Positions 14,885 through 41,961 of a stretch of 42,048 bases of DNA are shown here, piece after piece. This DNA comes from Solirubrobacteraceae bacterium (GTDB lineage: Bacteria; Actinomycetota; Thermoleophilia; Solirubrobacterales; Solirubrobacteraceae): contig JADGPL010000025.1 in NCBI GenBank assembly GCA_017882455.1, positions 1 through 42,048 on the forward strand, written 5' to 3'. The notes below the pieces were generated by a model that was given only the letters and a program-made list of their open reading frames with translations, was not told where the DNA came from and searched no databases. Positions within the stretch are counted from its first letter, which is position 1; each line of letters starts with the position of its first letter. A program made the position numbers and the translations under genes.

Positions 14885-17203
14885 ATGTCGAAGACGCTCC
14901 TGGTCGCAGAGAAGCCCTCCGTGGGGCAGGATCTCGCGCGCGTGCTGCCGGGACCCTTCAAGAAGCAGGAGGGTTTCCTCGAGGGGCCGGAGCACGTGGT
15001 CACGTGGGCCGTGGGGCACCTCGTGCAGCTGGCCGAACCGGAAGCATATGACGCCAAATACAAGAGCTGGCGAATGGCCGACCTGCCGATCGTGCCCGAC
15101 CGCTTCAAGCTCGAGGTGCGTGACGAGCGCTCGCGCAAGCAGATGTCGGTGGTCACCAAACAGCTGGGCCGCGAGGACGTGGAGGAGGTCGTCAACGCCT
15201 GCGACGCGGGCCGCGAGGGCGAGCTGATCTTCGCCTACCTGTTCGAGAAGGCCAAGGGCAAGAAGCCCGTGAAACGGCTGTGGCTGAACTCGATGACCAC
15301 CGCCGCGATGAAGAGCGCGCTGGCGTCGCTGCGCCCGGCCGAGGAGTTCGCGACCCTCGAGGAGGCCGCCCGCTCGCGTTCGGAGGCGGATTGGATCGTG
15401 GGCATGAACGCCACTCGCGCTGCCACGATCAGGCTGCGCAGCTCCTTCGACGGCGCCGTCTCGCTGGGGCGGGTGCAGACGCCGACACTGGCGATCGTGG
15501 CCCGCCGCGAGGAGGAGATCAGGGCGTTCAAGCCCGAGCCCTACTGGCTCGTGGACGCGACCTTCGCCGCCGGTCCGCTCGATGGCGAGGCGGCCGGCGC
15601 GGAGCGCACATATGTCGGGCACTTCCAGGCTCCGGCGGGGAGCCCCGGAACGACCAAGGGGCCGCGGATCGGCACCGAGCAGGAGGCCGCGGCGATCGTC
15701 AGCGCCTGCGAGGGGCGCCCCGGGACGATCACGAAGCTCGAGAAGAAGGAGCAGCGCGAGAAAGCCCCGATGCTCTACGACCTCACGACCCTGCAGCGCG
15801 AGGCCAACAATCGCTATGGCTTCTCGGCGCGCAGGACGCTTGCGGCGGCGCAGCGCCTGTACGAGGAGCACAAGGCCCTGACATATCCCAGGACCAACTC
15901 GCGCTACCTGACCACGGACATGGTCGAGGAGATCAAGCCGATCGCCGAGCTCGTGGGCAGGCACAGCGAGTACGCCAAGGGCGCCGCGTACGTGATCGGC
16001 CTGGACGTGCTGCCGCTCGGGCGCGTGGTCAACGACGAGAAGGTCACCGACCACCACGCGATCATCCCCACCCGCTCGGAGCACAACCTCGAGAAAATGG
16101 GCTCGGACGACAGGCGCGTGTACGACATGGCCGTGCGCCGCTTCCTGGCCGTGTTCCACCCGGAGGCGGTGTTCGAGAACACGCGCGTGGAGACGACCGT
16201 CAAGGCGGCCGACGCCAAGGGCGCCCACGTCTTTCGCACGCGCGGCAAGCTCCTGCTGGTGCCCGGCTGGCGCGGGGTCTACGACGAGATCTCAGCTGAC
16301 GCGAAGGCCGCCGAAAGCGAGGCGCGCGGCGAGGAGGACGAGGCCACCGAGCAGCAGCTGCCGCGACTGATCGACGGGGAGGAGGTCGAGACCCGCAAGA
16401 TCGAGAGCGCGCGCAAGGAAACCAAACCGCCACGGCGCTACAGCGACGCCTCGCTGCTCGGGGCGATGGAGACGGCGGGCAAGCTCGTGGACGACGACGA
16501 GCTGCGTGAGGCGATGAAGGACTCAGGGATAGGCACGCCGGCCACGCGGGCGGCGATCATCGAGCGGCTGATCACGGTCGGCTATATCGAGCGCGACGGC
16601 CGCGCGCTGGTGGCCACCGAGAAGGGTCTCAACGTGATCCGGCTGCTGAACGAGCACGCCCTCACATCGCCAGGGCTGACGGGCAGCTGGGAGCAGCGTC
16701 TGGGCAAGATCGAGCGTGGCGAGGACTCGCGCAAGAAGTTCATGAGCGACATCGCGGGCTTCGCCGAGGAGACCGTCAAGGAGCTCGACGAGACGCTCAA
16801 AGATGTGCGCATCCCGCGTGCCCGTCTCGGCCCGTGCCCGGTCTGCGGCCATGAGATCGTGGAGAACCGCAAGGGCTACTCCTGCTGGGCCCGCGACGAT
16901 CCGGGCTGCGGCTTCGTGATCTGGAAGGCCAAAGCCGGCAAGACCCTGCCGATCGCCATCGCCAAGGAGCTGATCAAGACGGGCTACACCGCCCAGGCGG
17001 TCACTGGCTTCCGCGGGCGCAGCGGGCGCAGCTTTCGGGCGCACCTCGCCCTCCAGCAGACCGAGGAGGGCAAATGGCGCGTGGAGTTCGACGAGCTGTG
17101 GGCGAAGGAGGGCGTCAAGCCGCCCGAGGCCGAGGCTGGCGAGGGCGAGACGGACGCCGCCGCAGCCAACGGCAAGGCCGTCGCGGCCCGCAGCGCCGCC
17201 TAG
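14885..17203 (+). CDS. topB: Type IA DNA topoisomerase (topoisomerase III-like)
   Basis: 772-residue enzyme that relaxes or decatenates DNA by single-strand passage. The Toprim motifs are VAEKPS (E9) and DAGREGE (107-113). SLGRVQTPTLAIV is at 193-205 and the active-site tyrosine is Y334 in ALTYPRTNSR. Architecture and motifs resemble TopB/topoisomerase III more than TopA. The C-terminal part adds a zinc motif starting CPVC at 651-654 with further Cys near 666-676, then a basic DNA-binding segment (about 690-745) and an acidic Ala-rich tail. ATG 14885 has TACGCT 7 nt upstream. A second, TopA-type enzyme is expected elsewhere in the genome. Confidence 0.92.
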   Translation: MSKTLLVAEKPSVGQDLARVLPGPFKKQEGFLEGPEHVVTWAVGHLVQLAEPEAYDAKYKSWRMADLPIVPDRFKLEVRDERSRKQMSVVTKQLGREDVEEVVNACDAGREGELIFAYLFEKAKGKKPVKRLWLNSMTTAAMKSALASLRPAEEFATLEEAARSRSEADWIVGMNATRAATIRLRSSFDGAVSLGRVQTPTLAIVARREEEIRAFKPEPYWLVDATFAAGPLDGEAAGAERTYVGHFQAPAGSPGTTKGPRIGTEQEAAAIVSACEGRPGTITKLEKKEQREKAPMLYDLTTLQREANNRYGFSARRTLAAAQRLYEEHKALTYPRTNSRYLTTDMVEEIKPIAELVGRHSEYAKGAAYVIGLDVLPLGRVVNDEKVTDHHAIIPTRSEHNLEKMGSDDRRVYDMAVRRFLAVFHPEAVFENTRVETTVKAADAKGAHVFRTRGKLLLVPGWRGVYDEISADAKAAESEARGEEDEATEQQLPRLIDGEEVETRKIESARKETKPPRRYSDASLLGAMETAGKLVDDDELREAMKDSGIGTPATRAAIIERLITVGYIERDGRALVATEKGLNVIRLLNEHALTSPGLTGSWEQRLGKIERGEDSRKKFMSDIAGFAEETVKELDETLKDVRIPRARLGPCPVCGHEIVENRKGYSCWARDDPGCGFVIWKAKAGKTLPIAIAKELIKTGYTAQAVTGFRGRSGRSFRAHLALQQTEEGKWRVEFDELWAKEGVKPPEAEAGEGETDAAAANGKAVAARSAA

Positions 17204-17324: not shown

Positions 17325-20219
17325 ATGCCCATCACCCTGCTCACGGGTCCCGCGAACGCCGGCAAGGCCCAGGTGGTCATGGACGCGGTGCGCGCCCATC
17401 TCGCCCACGGCGAGGAGCCGCTGTTGGTCGTGCCGACCAGGGCGGATACCGAGTACTACCTGCGCGAGCTCGCGGGTGACGGCGCCGCGATGGGCGCGCG
17501 CGTGGAGCGCTTCGACGGCCTGATCGAGGAGGCAGTGGGTCGCGCTCGGGTGAGGCAGCCGGTGCTCGGAGGACTGGCCCGCGAGCGGATCCTGGGCGCG
17601 ATCGCCGCGCCCGCGGAGGGCGTGCGGGCGACCCCGGGACTCATACGCGCGCTGGGGGCAATGTTCGCGGAGCTGCGCGTGCGCAGGGTGACGCCGGCGA
17701 CGCTCGCGCGCTCGTTGGCGCAATGGGCCGCGCAGGACGATGCGGGAGCCTCGCGGCTGCACCTGGCAGGGCTGTTCGAGCGCTACCAGGCAGCGCTTTC
17801 GGAGATTGGGCGCCTCGATGGCGAGCAGCGGGCGATAGCCGCCCTCGACGAGCTGCGGCGCACACCGGCCCGATGGGGTGCGACGCCCGTGCTGTTCTAC
17901 GGCTTCGATGACCTGACGCGGCTGCAGATCGATGCGATCGAGACGCTCGGCAGGGTCGTGGGGGCCAGGGTGACGGTCTCGCTCACGTTCGAGCCGGGGC
18001 GCACGGCGTTCGCCGGGCGGGCGGGGACGTTCGCGGCGCTCGCTCCGCTGGCCGACGAGCATCGCCACCTCGCAGCTCGCGCCGAGTACTACGCGCCCCG
18101 ATCCCGTAACGCTCTGAGTCATCTCGAGCGCTCGCTGTTCGAGGGCGAGGCGGAGCGCGTGGATCCGGCGGACGCAGTCCGCCTGCTCGAGGGCGGTGGC
18201 GAGCGCGCCGAGCTCGAGCTGGTCGCGCATGAGATCGATCGGCTCCTGCGGGATGGGATGGCGCCGGAGGAGATCGCGGTGGTGCTCCGCGCCTCGCCCG
18301 CCGGCGCCGACCTGCTCGAGGAGGTCTTCCTCGCTGCGGGAGTTCCCTACGCGTTTCAGCGGCGCAGGCGCTTCGTCGACACCTCCGTCGGCCGGGCCCT
18401 CGTCGGCCTGTTGCGCTGCGCCGGAGAGGCCCCTGACGGTGAGCTCGGCGATCTGCTTGCGTGGCTGCGCGCGCCCGGCCTGCTGGAGCGCCCCGAGCTG
18501 GCCGACCGGCTGGAGCTCGCGGCCCGCCGCAGCGGTGCCGTCAGCGCCGGGCGGGCCAGAGAGCTGTGGGAGCAGCGAAACTGGTCGCTACAGGAGCTGG
18601 ATCACCTCGGAGAGGCCGCCGGCCGTGGGCCGATCGCGCTGATCGATCGCGCCGGGCGCGAGCTGCTGCGCCTGTTTGCGGCGCCCAGGCGCAGGAGCGC
18701 AAGCGTGCTCGACGGCGAGGACGTGGAGGAGGCGCGTGCGTTCGCGGCCGGGCGTCGAGCGTTGGGGGAGCTGCGCGAGCTGGCCCGGGCGGCTCCCGAG
18801 ATGGCGCCTCGGCGCCCGGGCGATCTGGCGGAGGCGCTCGCCGGCGTGGAGCTCGTCGGTGGAGAGCGACCGGCTCCCGGTGCGGTGGCGGTCCTCGACC
18901 CGCTGGCCTTGCGCGCCCGGCGTGTCAGGGCGCTGTTCGTGTGCGGCCTGCAGGAGGGGGTCTTCCCAGCGCGTCCCCGGCCCCAGGCGCTGCTCGCAGA
19001 GGAGGAGCGCAGGCGACTGGCAGAAGCGGGCGGGCTGCGCCTAGGCGAGCACGAAGATCCGCTCGCCGCTGAGCGCTACCTGTTCTATGCGGCCGTCTCG
19101 CGCCCTGAGGAGCTGCTCGTCCTCAGCTGGCACGTGAGCGACGACGACGGCGAGCCGACAGCCTCCTCGCTGTTCGTCGAGGACCTGTGTGACCTCTTCG
19201 ACGCGGGCTTGATCGAGCGCAGGGCGCGCCGTGCGCTCGGCGCGGTCGGCTGGGCCGGCGAGTCGGCGACCCAGGCGCCGGCTGCGGCCCCGGCCGCGAC
19301 GCTCGGACACCCGCGCGTGCTCGAGCAGCTGCGCGGCCAGGTGTGGTCGGCGTCCTCGTTGGAGGTGTGGATCAGCTGTCCGGTGCGCTGGTTCGTGGAG
19401 CGGTTGCTGCGCCCCGGGGACCTCGAGCCGGACGCCGAGCCGCTCGCGCGCGGCGGGCTGGCCCATGCGGTGCTGAAGGACACGCTCGAGGGACTCAGGC
19501 GCCAGACCGGCTCAGCGCGGTTGACCCGTGCATCCTTGGCGGCGGCGCGCGAGCAGCTCGAGCGGGCTCTTGCCGAGAACGAGCCTCGGTTTCCGCTCTC
19601 GGTCGAGCCGGAGCGAGCACCCGGCGCCCTGCGCCGCCTGCGCTCGGACCTCGAGCGTTACCTGACTCATGCCGCCGAGACTGAGAGCCCACTCGAGCCG
19701 AGCGCCCTGGAGCTCGGCTTCGGCTTCGCCGCCGCGGATGAGCGCGGGCAGGCGAGCACGCTTGCGGCGTTCGAGCTCGGCGGGGGCGTGCGGATGCGCG
19801 GGAGGATCGACCGCGTCGACGTCGGTGAGGACGGCGAGGCGGTCGTGTACGACTACAAGGCGCGCAGCGCCCCGCCCGCCGCGAAGTGGATCGGGGAGGG
19901 CAAGCTGCAGGTGGCCCTGTACATGCGCGCGGTCGAGCAGCTCCTGGGTGTCTCCGCCGCCGGCGGCTTCTACCAGCCGCTGTCCGGCCCCGACCTTCGC
20001 GCTCGCGGCCTGCTCGACGGCGACAGCGGGGTGGAGCTCGATTGCGTCCGGGGGGACGTGCGCGAGCACGCCGATGTGCGCAGCCTGCTCGAGGAGGCGC
20101 TCGACGCCGCGCGTCAGGCGGCCGTCCAGGCCGGTGCCGGCGCACTGCAGTCGCGGCCGCGGAGCTGCGCCTATCAGGGCGGCTGCATGTATCCGACGAT
20201 CTGCCGGTGCCAGCCGTGA
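17325..20219 (+). CDS. addB: AddB-like helicase/nuclease subunit with PD-(D/E)XK domain
   Basis: 964-residue subunit of a RecBCD/AddAB-type double-strand-break repair complex. The N-terminal Walker A is GPANAGKA (residues 8-15), with Ala instead of Ser/Thr after Lys, so ATP turnover here is doubtful. The middle is a diverged UvrD-like body. The C-terminal RecB-family nuclease has DYK at 843-845, with C685 (SCPVRWF) before it and C948, C954, C960 and C962 after it, the layout of an Fe-S-stapled nuclease. ATG 17325 has AGGA 8 nt upstream; ATG 17316 and TTG 17268 are possible. Its stop overlaps the addA start (GTGA), so the two are coupled. Confidence 0.88.
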   Translation: MPITLLTGPANAGKAQVVMDAVRAHLAHGEEPLLVVPTRADTEYYLRELAGDGAAMGARVERFDGLIEEAVGRARVRQPVLGGLARERILGAIAAPAEGVRATPGLIRALGAMFAELRVRRVTPATLARSLAQWAAQDDAGASRLHLAGLFERYQAALSEIGRLDGEQRAIAALDELRRTPARWGATPVLFYGFDDLTRLQIDAIETLGRVVGARVTVSLTFEPGRTAFAGRAGTFAALAPLADEHRHLAARAEYYAPRSRNALSHLERSLFEGEAERVDPADAVRLLEGGGERAELELVAHEIDRLLRDGMAPEEIAVVLRASPAGADLLEEVFLAAGVPYAFQRRRRFVDTSVGRALVGLLRCAGEAPDGELGDLLAWLRAPGLLERPELADRLELAARRSGAVSAGRARELWEQRNWSLQELDHLGEAAGRGPIALIDRAGRELLRLFAAPRRRSASVLDGEDVEEARAFAAGRRALGELRELARAAPEMAPRRPGDLAEALAGVELVGGERPAPGAVAVLDPLALRARRVRALFVCGLQEGVFPARPRPQALLAEEERRRLAEAGGLRLGEHEDPLAAERYLFYAAVSRPEELLVLSWHVSDDDGEPTASSLFVEDLCDLFDAGLIERRARRALGAVGWAGESATQAPAAAPAATLGHPRVLEQLRGQVWSASSLEVWISCPVRWFVERLLRPGDLEPDAEPLARGGLAHAVLKDTLEGLRRQTGSARLTRASLAAAREQLERALAENEPRFPLSVEPERAPGALRRLRSDLERYLTHAAETESPLEPSALELGFGFAAADERGQASTLAAFELGGGVRMRGRIDRVDVGEDGEAVVYDYKARSAPPAAKWIGEGKLQVALYMRAVEQLLGVSAAGGFYQPLSGPDLRARGLLDGDSGVELDCVRGDVREHADVRSLLEEALDAARQAAVQAGAGALQSRPRSCAYQGGCMYPTICRCQP

Positions 20220-23200
20220 GCTCCGGCGCATCCGCTCCCCCCGCGGCCGGCCCCGTCCTGACCGACGAGCAGGAGCATCCGGTAGCGCGCCGCGCCGAGC
20301 CGCTGCTGCTGTCCGCGGGGGCCGGCTCAGGGAAGACCTCGGTGCTCGTCGAGCGCTTCGTCAGAGCGGTGCGCGAGGACGGCATCGCTCCCGGGAGGAT
20401 CCTCGCGATCACATTCACCGATCGGGCCGCGGGCGAGCTGCGCGAGCGCGTGCGGGCGCGCTTCCTGGAGCTTGGAGAACGCGAGGCGGCACGGGACACG
20501 GAGGCCGCCTTCGTGGGCACCTTCCACGGGTTCTGTGCGCGCCTGTTGCGCGCCCACCCGCTGCTGGCGGAGCTGGACCCGGACTTCGCGATCCTCGACG
20601 AGGGCACGGCAGGACGCCTGCGCGGGCGGGCCTTCAGCGCGGCGCTTCGCCTGTTTCTCGGTCGAGAGGATCGCGCCGGAGCGGTTGACCTGCTGGGCGC
20701 CTACGGGGTCGATCGCGTCCACGCGATGATCGCGGCCGTCCATGCGCAGCTGCGCAGTCGCGGGCAGCGCGTGCCGAGCCTGCCCGAGCCGATCGTGATC
20801 GAAGGCGCCACCGACGCGGATCAGAACGCGGAGGCAGCCGCGGCCTGCGCCCTGCTCGACGAGCTGCTGGGCGGCTTCTCGTGCGCTTATGAAGAGCTCA
20901 AGCGCGAACGCAGCGCCGTCGATTTCGACGACCTCGAGCTCTTCGCCCGTGACCTGCTCGAGCGCCACGAGACGGTCCGCGCGGCCTGGGCGGAGCGCTT
21001 CGAGCTGCTGATGGTCGATGAGTTTCAGGACACCAATCCACGCCAGCTCGCAATCCTGCGGGCGCTGGAGCGCGGGAACCTGTTCACGGTGGGCGACGAG
21101 TTCCAGTCGATCTACGGCTTCAGGCATGCCGACGTGAGCCTGTTTCGGGCGCGGCGCCAGGAGCTGGCGCCAAGCGGTGCCAGCCTCGCGCTGACCCGTA
21201 ACTTTCGGAGCCGCGCACCGCTGCTCGAAGTCGTCAACGCGGTCTTCGAGGAGCGCTTCGTCGAGTTCGCTCCGCTGCTGGCCGGGCGTGCGACCGAGTC
21301 GCCGGACGCAGGCGGGGCGAGCACGGCGCAGGCGCGCTCGCCCGGGCCCTCGGAGCCGCTGACCGAGCTGCTGCTGACGGACCGCTGCGGCTGGGAGGAG
21401 GACGGGGAGCTCGCGCGCGAGATCGCCGCTGGGCTGCCGAGCGCGCCGTTGTGGCGCCAGGCCGAGGCGTGCATGCTCGCCCAGCGTGTGGCCGAGCTCG
21501 TGCAGAGCGGTCGCGCCCGGGCGGGGGAGGTGGTCGTGCTGCTCCGCGCCCTGGGCGACCTCGACGTGTACGAGCGCGCGCTGCAACAGCGAGGGCTGCG
21601 CACGCTGGCGGCGGTGGGCGCCTTCTGGGAGCACCAGCAGGTGGGGGACCTGCTCGCCTACCTGCGCACCCTCGCCAACCCGCTGGACGAGCTGGCGCTG
21701 TACTCGACGTTGGCCTCGCCGCTGGTGGGAGTCTCACGGGACGGCCTGGCGCTGCTCGCCCTGGTCGCCCGCGCCGACGGGCGCGGGGCCTGGGAGACGG
21801 CCCTGCGCGTGGAGAGCGACGATCTCCTCGCGGGCGAGATCTCGCTGGAGGACCGTGGCGCGATCGTCGGCTTCTGCGAGCGCCTGCGCGGCGAGCGCGA
21901 GCGGGCCTCCAGACGGACCATCTCCGAGCTCGTCGAGCGCGCGATCGAGCACAGCGGCTACGAGCTGCACGCGCTGGGGCTCGAATGGGGCGAGCGTCGC
22001 CTGGCGAACCTGCACAAGCTCCTGCGCCTCGCGCGGCGCTTCGAGGCCAGCGAAGGGCGCGATCTACGCGCGTTTCTCGATCACGTGGCGTATCTCATCG
22101 GTGCGAGCAGCGCCGCCGAGTCCGACGCGCCCGTCGATGGAGCGGAGCCTGATGCTGTGCGCCTGATGAGCATCCACGCAGCCAAGGGCCTCGAGTTTCC
22201 GGTGGTGTGCGTGGCCGACCTCGGGCGCGCCCCCAACACGCGGCTGGCGGACCTGTTGGTGGAGGGCTCGCGGATCGGCTTGCAACTGGTCCGCCTCGAT
22301 GGCGGGAAGGCGACCGCCACGCTCGACTATGAGCAGCTGGCCGAGGAGCGCAGGGCGGCAGAGGCAGCGGAGGAGGATCGGATCCTGTACGTGGCGATGA
22401 CCCGGGCGCGTGAGCGCTTGATCCTGAGCGCAGCCGTGGACCTCCAACGCTGGCCAGAGGCGCGCCAGGGATCGACGGCGATCTCCTGGCTGGGGCCGGC
22501 GCTCGCGGCGGAGCTGCCCACGCTGGCTCAATCTGCGGGCGCGGAGTGGGAGCTGGCGGTCGGTCCGCTCGCAGCCCCGATCGGCGTTCGCCTGAACACC
22601 CCCGCGACCGCCACTGCAGTCCTGCGCCCGTCGCTCTCGCGCTCGGAGGGGGAATCGGACGCCAGTCGCGAGTTGGCCCCGGAGAGCCAGCCTGAGCCGG
22701 CCACCGCCGCGACGGATGCGCTGTCGGAGCAGGCGCCGCGAGGGAGCGCTCGGGTCCGAGCCGAGGCCACGCTGGAGCGGATCTCGACCCTGAGCTACAC
22801 CTCGCTCACCGAGTTGCAGCGCTGCGGGTACCGCTACTACCTGGAACGGGTGCTCGGCCTCCCCGAGGACCGGGCGGCGGCACGCGCGCCGGGCTTCGCT
22901 CACGGCCTGAGGGCGCGCGAGCGCGGGATTCTCGTGCACAGGCTGCTCGAGTCGTTTGACTTCGCCCGCCCGGTGATGCCGTCGCCCGCCGCCGTCGAGT
23001 CCCTGGCCCAGGAGCTCGGGATCGGCCTCGAGATCGGCGACAGCGCGAGGATCGCCGAGCTCCTCGAGACGGCCGTCCGCTCTGCGCCGGCGAGGCGGAT
23101 CGCGGCGGCGCGCGAGGTGCGCCGCGAGCATCCGTTCGCCTTCTCGCTCGGCGCAGGGGAGCCGCTGGTCACGGGAGCGATCGACCTGCTCGCTCGTGAG

Positions 23201-23602
23201 CAGGACGGCGGGTGGGTGGTGCTGGACTACAAGAGCGATCGCGTCGGGCCCGAGGTCGACCTGGCAGGGCTGGTGGAGCGCGAGTACGGCGTCCAGCGAC
23301 TGCTCTACGCGCTCGCGGTTCTGCGCAAAGGTGCGCCGAGGGTGGAGATCGTGCACTGGTTTCTCGAGCGTCCCGACGACTGGGTTGGCGCGAGCTACGC
23401 CGCGGGGGAGCGGGAAGCCCTCGAATCGGGCCTCGCCCAGCGCCTGACGCGAGCTCGGGAGAGAGGGTTCGCGGTCGCCGGGGCTCCCCATCGCGGCCTG
23501 TGCCTGACCTGTCCGGGGCGCGCCAGCCTCTGCTCCTGGGGAGAGGAGCGGACGATGCGCGAGCTTCCACTCGAGGGCGGGCCCTTGCCGGAGGGCCGCT
23601 GA
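20216..23602 (+). CDS. addA: AddA-like UvrD-type helicase with C-terminal nuclease
   Basis: 1128-residue motor-nuclease subunit partnering the AddB-like protein. Superfamily 1 helicase motifs in order: Q-like LTDEQ (15-19), Walker A SAGAGSGKT (K40), Walker B VDEFQDTN, VGDEFQSIYGFR, RNFRS, SIHAAKGLEFP and LYVAMTRARERL. The C-terminal RecB-type nuclease has GAIDLL and LDYKSD (D1004, K1006). C870 lies before it and C1096, C1099 and C1106 after it, again an Fe-S arrangement; Bacillus AddA lacks this, as far as I know. A Ser/Pro/Glu-rich linker (about 800-860) separates motor and nuclease. GTG 20216 overlaps the addB stop. It processes double-strand ends for recombination. Confidence 0.9.
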   Translation: MSSGASAPPAAGPVLTDEQEHPVARRAEPLLLSAGAGSGKTSVLVERFVRAVREDGIAPGRILAITFTDRAAGELRERVRARFLELGEREAARDTEAAFVGTFHGFCARLLRAHPLLAELDPDFAILDEGTAGRLRGRAFSAALRLFLGREDRAGAVDLLGAYGVDRVHAMIAAVHAQLRSRGQRVPSLPEPIVIEGATDADQNAEAAAACALLDELLGGFSCAYEELKRERSAVDFDDLELFARDLLERHETVRAAWAERFELLMVDEFQDTNPRQLAILRALERGNLFTVGDEFQSIYGFRHADVSLFRARRQELAPSGASLALTRNFRSRAPLLEVVNAVFEERFVEFAPLLAGRATESPDAGGASTAQARSPGPSEPLTELLLTDRCGWEEDGELAREIAAGLPSAPLWRQAEACMLAQRVAELVQSGRARAGEVVVLLRALGDLDVYERALQQRGLRTLAAVGAFWEHQQVGDLLAYLRTLANPLDELALYSTLASPLVGVSRDGLALLALVARADGRGAWETALRVESDDLLAGEISLEDRGAIVGFCERLRGERERASRRTISELVERAIEHSGYELHALGLEWGERRLANLHKLLRLARRFEASEGRDLRAFLDHVAYLIGASSAAESDAPVDGAEPDAVRLMSIHAAKGLEFPVVCVADLGRAPNTRLADLLVEGSRIGLQLVRLDGGKATATLDYEQLAEERRAAEAAEEDRILYVAMTRARERLILSAAVDLQRWPEARQGSTAISWLGPALAAELPTLAQSAGAEWELAVGPLAAPIGVRLNTPATATAVLRPSLSRSEGESDASRELAPESQPEPATAATDALSEQAPRGSARVRAEATLERISTLSYTSLTELQRCGYRYYLERVLGLPEDRAAARAPGFAHGLRARERGILVHRLLESFDFARPVMPSPAAVESLAQELGIGLEIGDSARIAELLETAVRSAPARRIAAAREVRREHPFAFSLGAGEPLVTGAIDLLAREQDGGWVVLDYKSDRVGPEVDLAGLVEREYGVQRLLYALAVLRKGAPRVEIVHWFLERPDDWVGASYAAGEREALESGLAQRLTRARERGFAVAGAPHRGLCLTCPGRASLCSWGEERTMRELPLEGGPLPEGR

Positions 23603-35618: not shown

Positions 35619-35643
35619 AGCGTACCTGGACGCCCCCTACAAT
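35619..35643. promoter_or_regulatory. Divergent -10 boxes for the acyltransferase and ispH
   Basis: On the minus strand TACGCT (35619-35624) ends 8 nt before ATG 35610. On the plus strand TACAAT (35638-35643) ends 7 nt before ATG 35651. The two boxes are only 13 bp apart, so their polymerase footprints must overlap and the promoters probably compete. Confidence 0.5.
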
Positions 35644-35650
35644 GACACCC

Positions 35651-36613
35651 ATGGACAATACGGTTGAGAAGCTGCTCTTGGCGGCGCCTCGTGGCTACTG
35701 CGCAGGGGTCGATCGTGCCGTGCAGACGGTCGAACGCGCCCTCGTGATCCACGGCGCGCCCGTCTACGTGCGCAAGGAGATCGTGCACAACAAGCACGTC
35801 GTCGAGCAGCTGCGCGAGCGGGGCGCGATCTTCGTCGACGAGCAGACCGAGGTGCCCGAGGGCGCCGTGTGCGTGTTCTCCGCTCACGGCATCGCGCCCA
35901 GCGTGCGTCGGGGCGCCGAGGAGCGCGGATTGCAGACGATCGACGCCACCTGCCCGCTTGTGACCAAGGTCCATCGCGAGGCCGTGCGCTTCGCCGAGGA
36001 GGGATACACGATCGTGCTCGTCGGCCACGATGGGCACGAGGAGGTCGAAGGCACGATGGGCGAGGCCCCCGATCAGATCGTGCTGGTGCAGAGCGAGGCC
36101 GATGTCGAGGACCTTCAGGTGAAGGACCCGAAGCGCATCGCCTACGTCACCCAGACGACGCTTGCCGTTGACGAAACGAGCGCGATCCTCGCCCGCCTGC
36201 GCGAGCGCTTTCCCGATATCAGGGGCCCGCGCACCGATGACATCTGCTATGCCACCACGAACCGTCAGGCGGCGGTCAAGCAGATGGCGAGCAGCTGCGA
36301 TCTGATGCTCGTGATCGGTTCGCGCAACTCCTCCAACTCGGTGCGCCTCGTGGAGGTCGCACGGGACTGCGGCACGGCGGCCCACCTGATCGACAACGCG
36401 GGCGAGGTGCAGGAGCAGTGGCTGAGCGGCGTGCGCGTGGTGGGCATCTCCTCCGGCGCGAGCGCGCCCGAGAACCTCGTCGGAGAGCTGGTCGACCTCT
36501 TCCGCTCGCGCGGCGTCAGCGATGTCTCGGAGTTCGACGTGGTGCGCGAGGACGTCCGCTTCATGCTGCCCAAGCAGATACGCGAGGCGGTCGTCGCGGG
36601 CGGGGCCTCCTGA
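35651..36613 (+). CDS. ispH: 4-hydroxy-3-methylbut-2-enyl diphosphate reductase
   Basis: Last enzyme of the MEP isoprenoid pathway, a 4Fe-4S protein that reduces HMBPP to IPP and DMAPP. It has 320 residues. The three cluster cysteines are C17 (RGYCAGV), C101 (DATCPLV) and C199 (DDICYATTNRQ). The catalytic E is in the EVEGTMGEAP loop, and SSGASAPENLV is the C-terminal substrate motif. Start: ATG 35651 lies 7 nt after the TACAAT box; ATG 35642, three codons upstream, overlaps that box and is less likely. The actual difference is three residues. It is divergent from the acyltransferase. Confidence 0.96.
   Translation: MDNTVEKLLLAAPRGYCAGVDRAVQTVERALVIHGAPVYVRKEIVHNKHVVEQLRERGAIFVDEQTEVPEGAVCVFSAHGIAPSVRRGAEERGLQTIDATCPLVTKVHREAVRFAEEGYTIVLVGHDGHEEVEGTMGEAPDQIVLVQSEADVEDLQVKDPKRIAYVTQTTLAVDETSAILARLRERFPDIRGPRTDDICYATTNRQAAVKQMASSCDLMLVIGSRNSSNSVRLVEVARDCGTAAHLIDNAGEVQEQWLSGVRVVGISSGASAPENLVGELVDLFRSRGVSDVSEFDVVREDVRFMLPKQIREAVVAGGAS

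Positions 36614-40560: not shown

Positions 40561-41961
<1,401 letters not shown>

What the first reader, a model, noticed from the sequence alone, without database searches (positions are those of the whole stretch)
17325..23602. AddA- and AddB-like subunits both carry Fe-S-type nuclease cysteines
In Bacillus-type AddAB only AddB is known to hold a 4Fe-4S cluster. Here the AddB-like protein has C685 plus C948/C954/C960/C962, and the AddA-like protein has C870 plus C1096/C1099/C1106 (CxxC-x6-C), each set bracketing a DYK nuclease motif. The AddB-like Walker A (GPANAGKA) lacks the Ser/Thr after Lys, suggesting a single-motor, dual-Fe-S nuclease machine.
Basis: partly seen in the sequence, partly recalled or inferred. 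Interest (0 to 1): 0.62.

Follow-up and report, generated by a model that had tools for sequence, protein, structure and literature searches.

The report
AddAB enzyme with two iron-sulfur nucleases
In a large group of soil actinobacteria, both halves of the AddAB enzyme that trims broken DNA carry the four-cysteine signature of an iron-sulfur nuclease, whereas in the textbook Bacillus enzyme only one half does; this is a well-supported variant of a known machine, predicted from sequence and not yet tested at the bench.

Summary
The window (a Solirubrobacterales genome) encodes an addB-addA pair, 17325-20219 and 20216-23602. Both proteins end in a PDDEXK_1 (RecB-family) nuclease with the full catalytic set and four cysteines bracketing it. 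In AddA all four are invariant in 43/43 aligned relatives. In AddB, C685, C954 and C960 are invariant in 33/33 and C948 nearly so; the fifth, C962, is not conserved. High-confidence models (pLDDT 92.8 each) superpose on known Fe-S nucleases (AddB, AdnA, Cas4 family, Dna2, EXO5) through the cysteine tail; the AddA model matches Bacillus AddA only to residue 212, where that chain ends. In sampled Actinomycetota, AddA cysteines never occur without AddB cysteines (20 both, 18 AddB only, 9 neither, 0 AddA only). The dual state spans several Thermoleophilia families, two families of other classes, and some AdnAB-like systems. The degenerate AddB Walker A is real (Ala in 34/35 Solirubrobacterales), but a single motor is normal for AddAB. 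Best reading: an AddAB-type resection enzyme with two iron-staple nucleases, a new variant of a known kind. I found no paper in the held library reporting Fe-S in AddA. Metal binding is inferred, not measured.

The parts
17325..20219 (+). addB-like gene, 964 aa: degenerate SF1 helicase-like N-terminus plus C-terminal RecB-family nuclease
   Evidence: ADDB_N, PDDEXK_1; no PF00580 motor match; addB_Gpos best, below cut-off
17346..17369 (+). degenerate Walker A GPANAGKA in AddB (Ala where Ser/Thr is expected)
19344..20207 (+). AddB nuclease domain (PDDEXK_1)
19377..19379 (+). AddB C685, first Fe-S cysteine
19851..19859 (+). AddB DYK catalytic motif (843-845)
20166..20204 (+). AddB C948-x5-C954-x5-C960, Fe-S cysteine tail; C962 just behind it is not conserved
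20216..23602 (+). addA-like gene, GTG start, 1128 aa: UvrD-type motor plus RecB-family nuclease; overlaps the addB stop by 4 bases (GTGA)
20315..20338 (+). intact Walker A AGAGSGKT of the AddA motor
22787..23521 (+). AddA nuclease domain (PDDEXK_1)
22823..22825 (+). AddA C870, first Fe-S cysteine
23225..23233 (+). AddA DYK catalytic motif (1004-1006)
23501..23533 (+). AddA C1096-x2-C1099-x6-C1106, Fe-S cysteine tail

Best explanation
The pair is an AddAB-type helicase-nuclease for processing double-strand DNA ends. AddA is the single ATP-driven 3'-5' motor; AddB is a motor-dead scaffold. Each subunit ends in an active RecB-family nuclease, and in both the four cysteines most likely hold an iron-sulfur cluster that staples the C-terminal tail to the start of the domain. 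The AddB cluster would have its known job of DNA-end binding and domain integrity on the 5'-strand path. The AddA cluster would do the same for the nuclease at the exit of the 3'-strand path, which in Bacillus lacks a staple. Shown here: genes, motifs, invariance, fold, lineage distribution. Inferred: metal binding, cluster type, complex formation, strand assignment (from Bacillus AddAB) and function.
For: PDDEXK_1 in both subunits over cut-off. AddA Cys 43/43 with invariant H, E, D, D-x-K, QxxxY; AddB C685/C954/C960 33/33 and C948 at least 90%, with the same catalytic set. Models with pLDDT 92.8 each. The AddA model aligns through the Cys tail with AdnA (Z 16.6, 230 residues, rmsd 3.5), AddB (13.3), ACE1 Cas4-family (13.1), Cas4 SSO0001 (11.6), Dna2 (10.8) and EXO5 (10.6), but with Bacillus AddA only over model residues 1-212 and with RecB to 228. 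The AddB model aligns with Bacillus AddB over 1-297 (Z 24.6). hhalign puts the first Cys of AddA on the first Cys of AddB. AddA Cys occur only with AddB Cys: 20 both, 18 AddB only, 9 neither, 0 AddA only. The pattern of four Cys spanning the domain is the published iron-staple signature (PMC7430649).
Against: No metal was measured. Four cysteines could bind zinc. NCBIfam equivalog cut-offs for AddA (349 against 707.65 bits) and AddB (99.9 against 903.7) are not reached.
Confidence: 0.82

Rival explanations
1. The AddA cysteines form a structural zinc site (or, after evolution, a disulfide) and not an Fe-S cluster; only AddB carries Fe-S.
For: CxxC-x6-C motifs are also used by zinc sites; no spectroscopy exists for this lineage.
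Against: The first cysteine sits about 226 residues before the tail, at the equivalent position to the first Fe-S cysteine of AddB, and the tail superposes on known Fe-S nucleases (AddB, AdnA, Cas4, Dna2, EXO5). This domain-spanning pattern is the signature by which Fe-S nucleases were recognised (PMC7430649).
Confidence: 0.1
2. The pair is an AdnAB (two-motor) system like that of mycobacteria, not AddAB.
For: Same phylum. On a quick tree of helicase parts the window AddA falls on the side that also holds AdnB and the stand-alone helicase-nucleases of f19, though that fork is weak (82, not starred). The AddA nuclease model is nearest to AdnA by Z, tied with AddA.
Against: The upstream subunit has no PF00580 motor match and a dead Walker A, and matches ADDB_N. 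AdnA-like subunits in the sample keep GPGTGKT or GAGSGKS. The AddB nuclease model is clearly nearer to AddB (Z 24.6) than to AdnA (18.3).
Confidence: 0.08
3. The AddA cysteines are conserved by descent or codon chance without a shared function.
For: The relatives are from one order, with many rows at 40-60% identity.
Against: Other AddA cysteines vary freely in the same rows; the four stay fixed down to 31% identity, and the same pattern, with different tail spacing and sequence, recurs in other families.
Confidence: 0.01

Closest known systems
Bacillus subtilis AddAB (PDB 3u44, 4cei, 4cej)
   Same: Two subunits, each with a RecB-family nuclease; one SF1A motor in AddA; AddB with Fe-S cysteines; AddB nuclease model aligns over its whole length.
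   Different: Bacillus AddA ends where the cysteine tail begins (model 1-212 only) and the stretch that should hold its first cysteine has none in the printed alignment. Tail spacing in AddB differs: C-x5-C-x5-C here against C-x2-C-x5-C in Bacillus.
Mycobacterial AdnAB (PDB 6ppr, 6ppu, 7sjr, 9np6)
   Same: Heterodimer with a nuclease on each subunit; Cys set in AdnA.
   Different: AdnA keeps a motor Walker A; AdnB of the sampled f31 genomes has no Cys tail and Asp at the place of the first Cys. Here the upstream subunit is motor-dead and both have Cys.
UvrD-Cas4 fusions of pfam12705 (PMC5704561)
   Same: A 3'-5' SF1 helicase fused to a Cas4-like Fe-S nuclease on one chain, as in the window AddA.
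   Different: Reported as stand-alone or in variable contexts; here the protein is the partner of an AddB in a conserved overlapping gene pair.
Iron-staple nucleases: Cas4, Dna2, Bad, EXO5
   Same: Four Cys spanning the RecB-family domain; superpose through the tail.
   Different: Single-chain proteins or other partners.

Membership tests
AddAB | Two adjacent genes, each product with an SF1-like N-terminal part and a C-terminal RecB-family nuclease | tested here: met
   conserved pair in relatives
AddAB | AddA carries a full SF1A motor | tested here: met
   PF00580 1.2e-58 and PF13361; Walker A AGAGSGKT, DEFQDTN
AddAB | AddB has a helicase-like fold but is not a motor | tested here: met
   ADDB_N match, no PF00580 match; dead Walker A. 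By sequence only
AddAB | AddB nuclease holds four Fe-S cysteines | tested here: met
AddAB | NCBIfam equivalog cut-off for addA_Gpos / addB_Gpos | tested here: not met
   349.4 of 707.65 and 99.9 of 903.7 bits: best-matching AddAB models, but a divergent lineage; this is a naming threshold of Gram-positive models, not a biochemical feature
AddAB | Chi recognition by AddB | not tested
   the Chi of this lineage is unknown
AdnAB | Motor motifs in both subunits | tested here: not met
   upstream subunit GPANAGKA, no PF00580 match
Iron-staple (Fe-S RecB-family) nuclease, AddA subunit | One N-terminal Cys and three C-terminal Cys bracketing intact nuclease motifs | tested here: met
   43/43
Iron-staple (Fe-S RecB-family) nuclease, AddA subunit | The four Cys lie together in space | tested here: inconclusive
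Iron-staple (Fe-S RecB-family) nuclease, AddA subunit | Bound Fe-S cluster | not testable with these tools
   needs purified protein

The most novel reading that the evidence does not exclude
A whole lineage of actinobacteria runs a break-resection enzyme with an Fe-S cluster on each strand-exit nuclease, so that the 3'-strand nuclease also depends on cluster integrity and could be switched off by oxidation or iron loss, giving a second, Chi-independent control on resection.
Probability: 0.2. Interest if true: 0.6.

Novelty: new variant of a known kind. Interest (0 to 1): 0.42.

Why it matters
In the studied AddAB, only the AddB nuclease carries an Fe-S staple, which is needed to bind broken ends. 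A natural AddAB in which both nucleases carry it lets one ask, by separate Cys changes in each subunit, what the cluster does for each strand. It also shows that the AddA nuclease comes in two forms, and in the sampled Actinomycetota the stapled AddA is found only next to a stapled AddB.

Tried and rejected
C962 as a fifth ligand: rejected, 18/28. Single motor as a novelty: rejected, normal for AddAB. Link between Walker A loss and dual Fe-S: rejected, f6 and f15/f18 have dual Cys with intact Walker A. The phylum survey favours genomes with high A1 scores, so its counts are not frequencies. hhalign of AddA against AddB covered only the first two thirds. Key primary papers (Yeeles 2009, Sinha 2009, the AdnAB structure paper) are not held, so an earlier remark on AddA or AdnB cysteines there cannot be excluded.

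Full report
WHAT IS THERE. Two overlapping genes on the + strand. addB runs 17325-20219 (964 aa) and addA starts at GTG 20216, sharing GTGA with the addB stop, and ends at 23602 (1128 aa). AddB matches ADDB_N and PDDEXK_1; AddA matches UvrD-helicase, UvrD_C and PDDEXK_1. The best whole-protein models in NCBIfam are addB_Gpos and addA_Gpos, both well below their naming cut-offs. The gene upstream is a topoisomerase III (topB), the gene downstream glutamate synthase large subunit.

THE CYSTEINES. All positions in the finding are right (AddA positions in P0002 are higher by 11 because P0002 begins 11 codons upstream of the GTG). In 29 relatives from the same genus, family and order, the AddA four are 29/29, while other AddA cysteines vary (C402 2/29, C430 1/29, C234 1/28); C118 and C676, in helicase motifs, are also conserved. 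AddB C685 is 20/20, C948 27/28, C954 and C960 28/28, C962 18/28. In the named set, AddA is 43/43 and AddB 33/33 for C685, C954, C960, with C948 at 90% or more. The catalytic H, E, D, DxK and QxxxY positions are invariant in both sets, so both nucleases should be active (inference). These two sets share many genomes and are not independent; and the scan patterns behind the named set include cysteines. The 29-relative set was found with the whole AddA protein, so it does not share that bias.

STRUCTURE. AlphaFold2 models of the two nuclease domains have mean pLDDT 92.8 and pTM 0.88 and 0.91. In VIA-align, the AddA model aligns with AdnA over 1-262 (Z 16.6), AddB over 1-276 (13.3), ACE1 7-264 (13.1), Cas4 SSO0001 8-268 (11.6), Dna2 6-268 (10.8) and EXO5 3-263 (10.6). 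With Bacillus AddA (Z 15.9) it stops at model residue 212, at the last residue of that chain (1232), and with RecB at 228. The three tail cysteines of the model are 249, 252 and 259. A range gives only first and last aligned residues, so this shows that the tail is matched in Fe-S nucleases and absent in Bacillus AddA; it does not measure Cys distances, and no coordinates were laid in the box. The AddB model aligns with Bacillus AddB over 1-297 at Z 24.6 and with AdnA at 18.3. Profile alignment of the two families puts the first Cys of one on the first Cys of the other. Cas4 with four Cys holds an Fe-S cluster by crystal structure (PMC4176176), and the domain-spanning four-Cys pattern is the published iron-staple signature, first found in AddB (PMC7430649).

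DISTRIBUTION. 60 places were taken from genomes of the class and phylum, chosen partly by score, so counts are not frequencies. Dual Cys sets: Solirubrobacterales, and in the same class families f6, f7, f8, f51; outside the class f25, f47, and the two-motor AdnAB-like f15 and f18. AddB/AdnA only: f5 and f50 of the same class, f9, f11, f20, f27, f31, f35, f42, f43, f49. Neither full set: f17, f22, f28, f40, f41 (by a tail pattern, with the first Cys read by eye). f19 proteins have a Cys tail but no upstream partner was found. Of 47 rows with both states called, 20 are both, 18 AddB only, 9 neither, 0 AddA only. On a quick tree of the AddA motor part without the nuclease, 69 rows, the AddA state needs 3 changes and the AddB state 4; the tree is unrooted, so gain and loss cannot be told apart. 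f31 genome G130 carries an AdnA whose printed stretch (SPSTLQMLTDCPLRWLLER) equals that of the solved mycobacterial AdnA; for AdnB of f31 the tail has no cysteine. Thus in mycobacteria-like AdnAB only one subunit has the set.

WALKER A. GPANAGKA is typical: the last position is Ala in 34 of 35 Solirubrobacterales rows. In f8 and f51 it is Val, in f25 Lys, and in f6 the motif is GSGKT. In Bacillus, AddAB uses a single SF1A motor in AddA (PMC4027173), while ATP binding at a second site in AddB affects stability of the Chi complex (PMC4824097). So the lost Ser/Thr may mean that this second ATP site is weakened (inference), but it does not create a new single-motor design and it does not travel with the dual Cys state.

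MECHANISM. Most likely: end binding by AddB with its Fe-S nuclease; translocation on the 3' strand by AddA; cutting of the two strands by the two nucleases at the channel exits, as in Bacillus (PMC4027173). In this lineage the nuclease on the AddA side is stapled as well. Steps shown: genes, motifs, invariance, fold. Steps inferred: cluster, complex, strand assignment, effect of the AddA cluster.

NOVELTY. I found no report in the held library of an Fe-S cluster in AddA, but the main primary papers are not held. UvrD-Cas4 fusions (PMC5704561) already show that a UvrD-type motor can carry such a nuclease, which lowers the surprise. I rate this a new variant of a known kind, well supported as a sequence and fold prediction.

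Noticed in passing
L001 1486-3171 (-), i.e. G000 contig C48: The same genome has another UvrD_C-like plus PDDEXK protein piece (561 aa, no N-terminal motor in this frame) with its own four-Cys pattern (RSCPLRY ... CSICDYRIVC), like the UvrD-Cas4 fusions; longer ORFs (about 1050-1400 aa) stand at the like place in relatives.
   Followed up: partly
window 40561-41961 (-) and 35642-36613 (+): The window also encodes a SufB/SufD Fe-S assembly protein and a LytB/IspH protein (an Fe-S enzyme family).
   Followed up: no
window 14885-17203 (+): DNA topoisomerase III (topB) lies directly upstream of addB; whether the neighbourhood is conserved was not checked.
   Followed up: no
L164, L174, L183 upstream subunits (families f17, f29, f40): AddB/AdnA-like tails read CAWCDHDGLG, CHYCDPDGLG, CVFCDPDGLG: the third tail cysteine is gone and replaced by a DGLG stretch, a possible decayed or altered cluster site.
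   Followed up: no
L047: A contig labelled Chlamydiae (BOG_genome_mining.142) carries an AddA that sits inside the Solirubrobacterales clade, so the record is probably mislabelled or misbinned.
   Followed up: no
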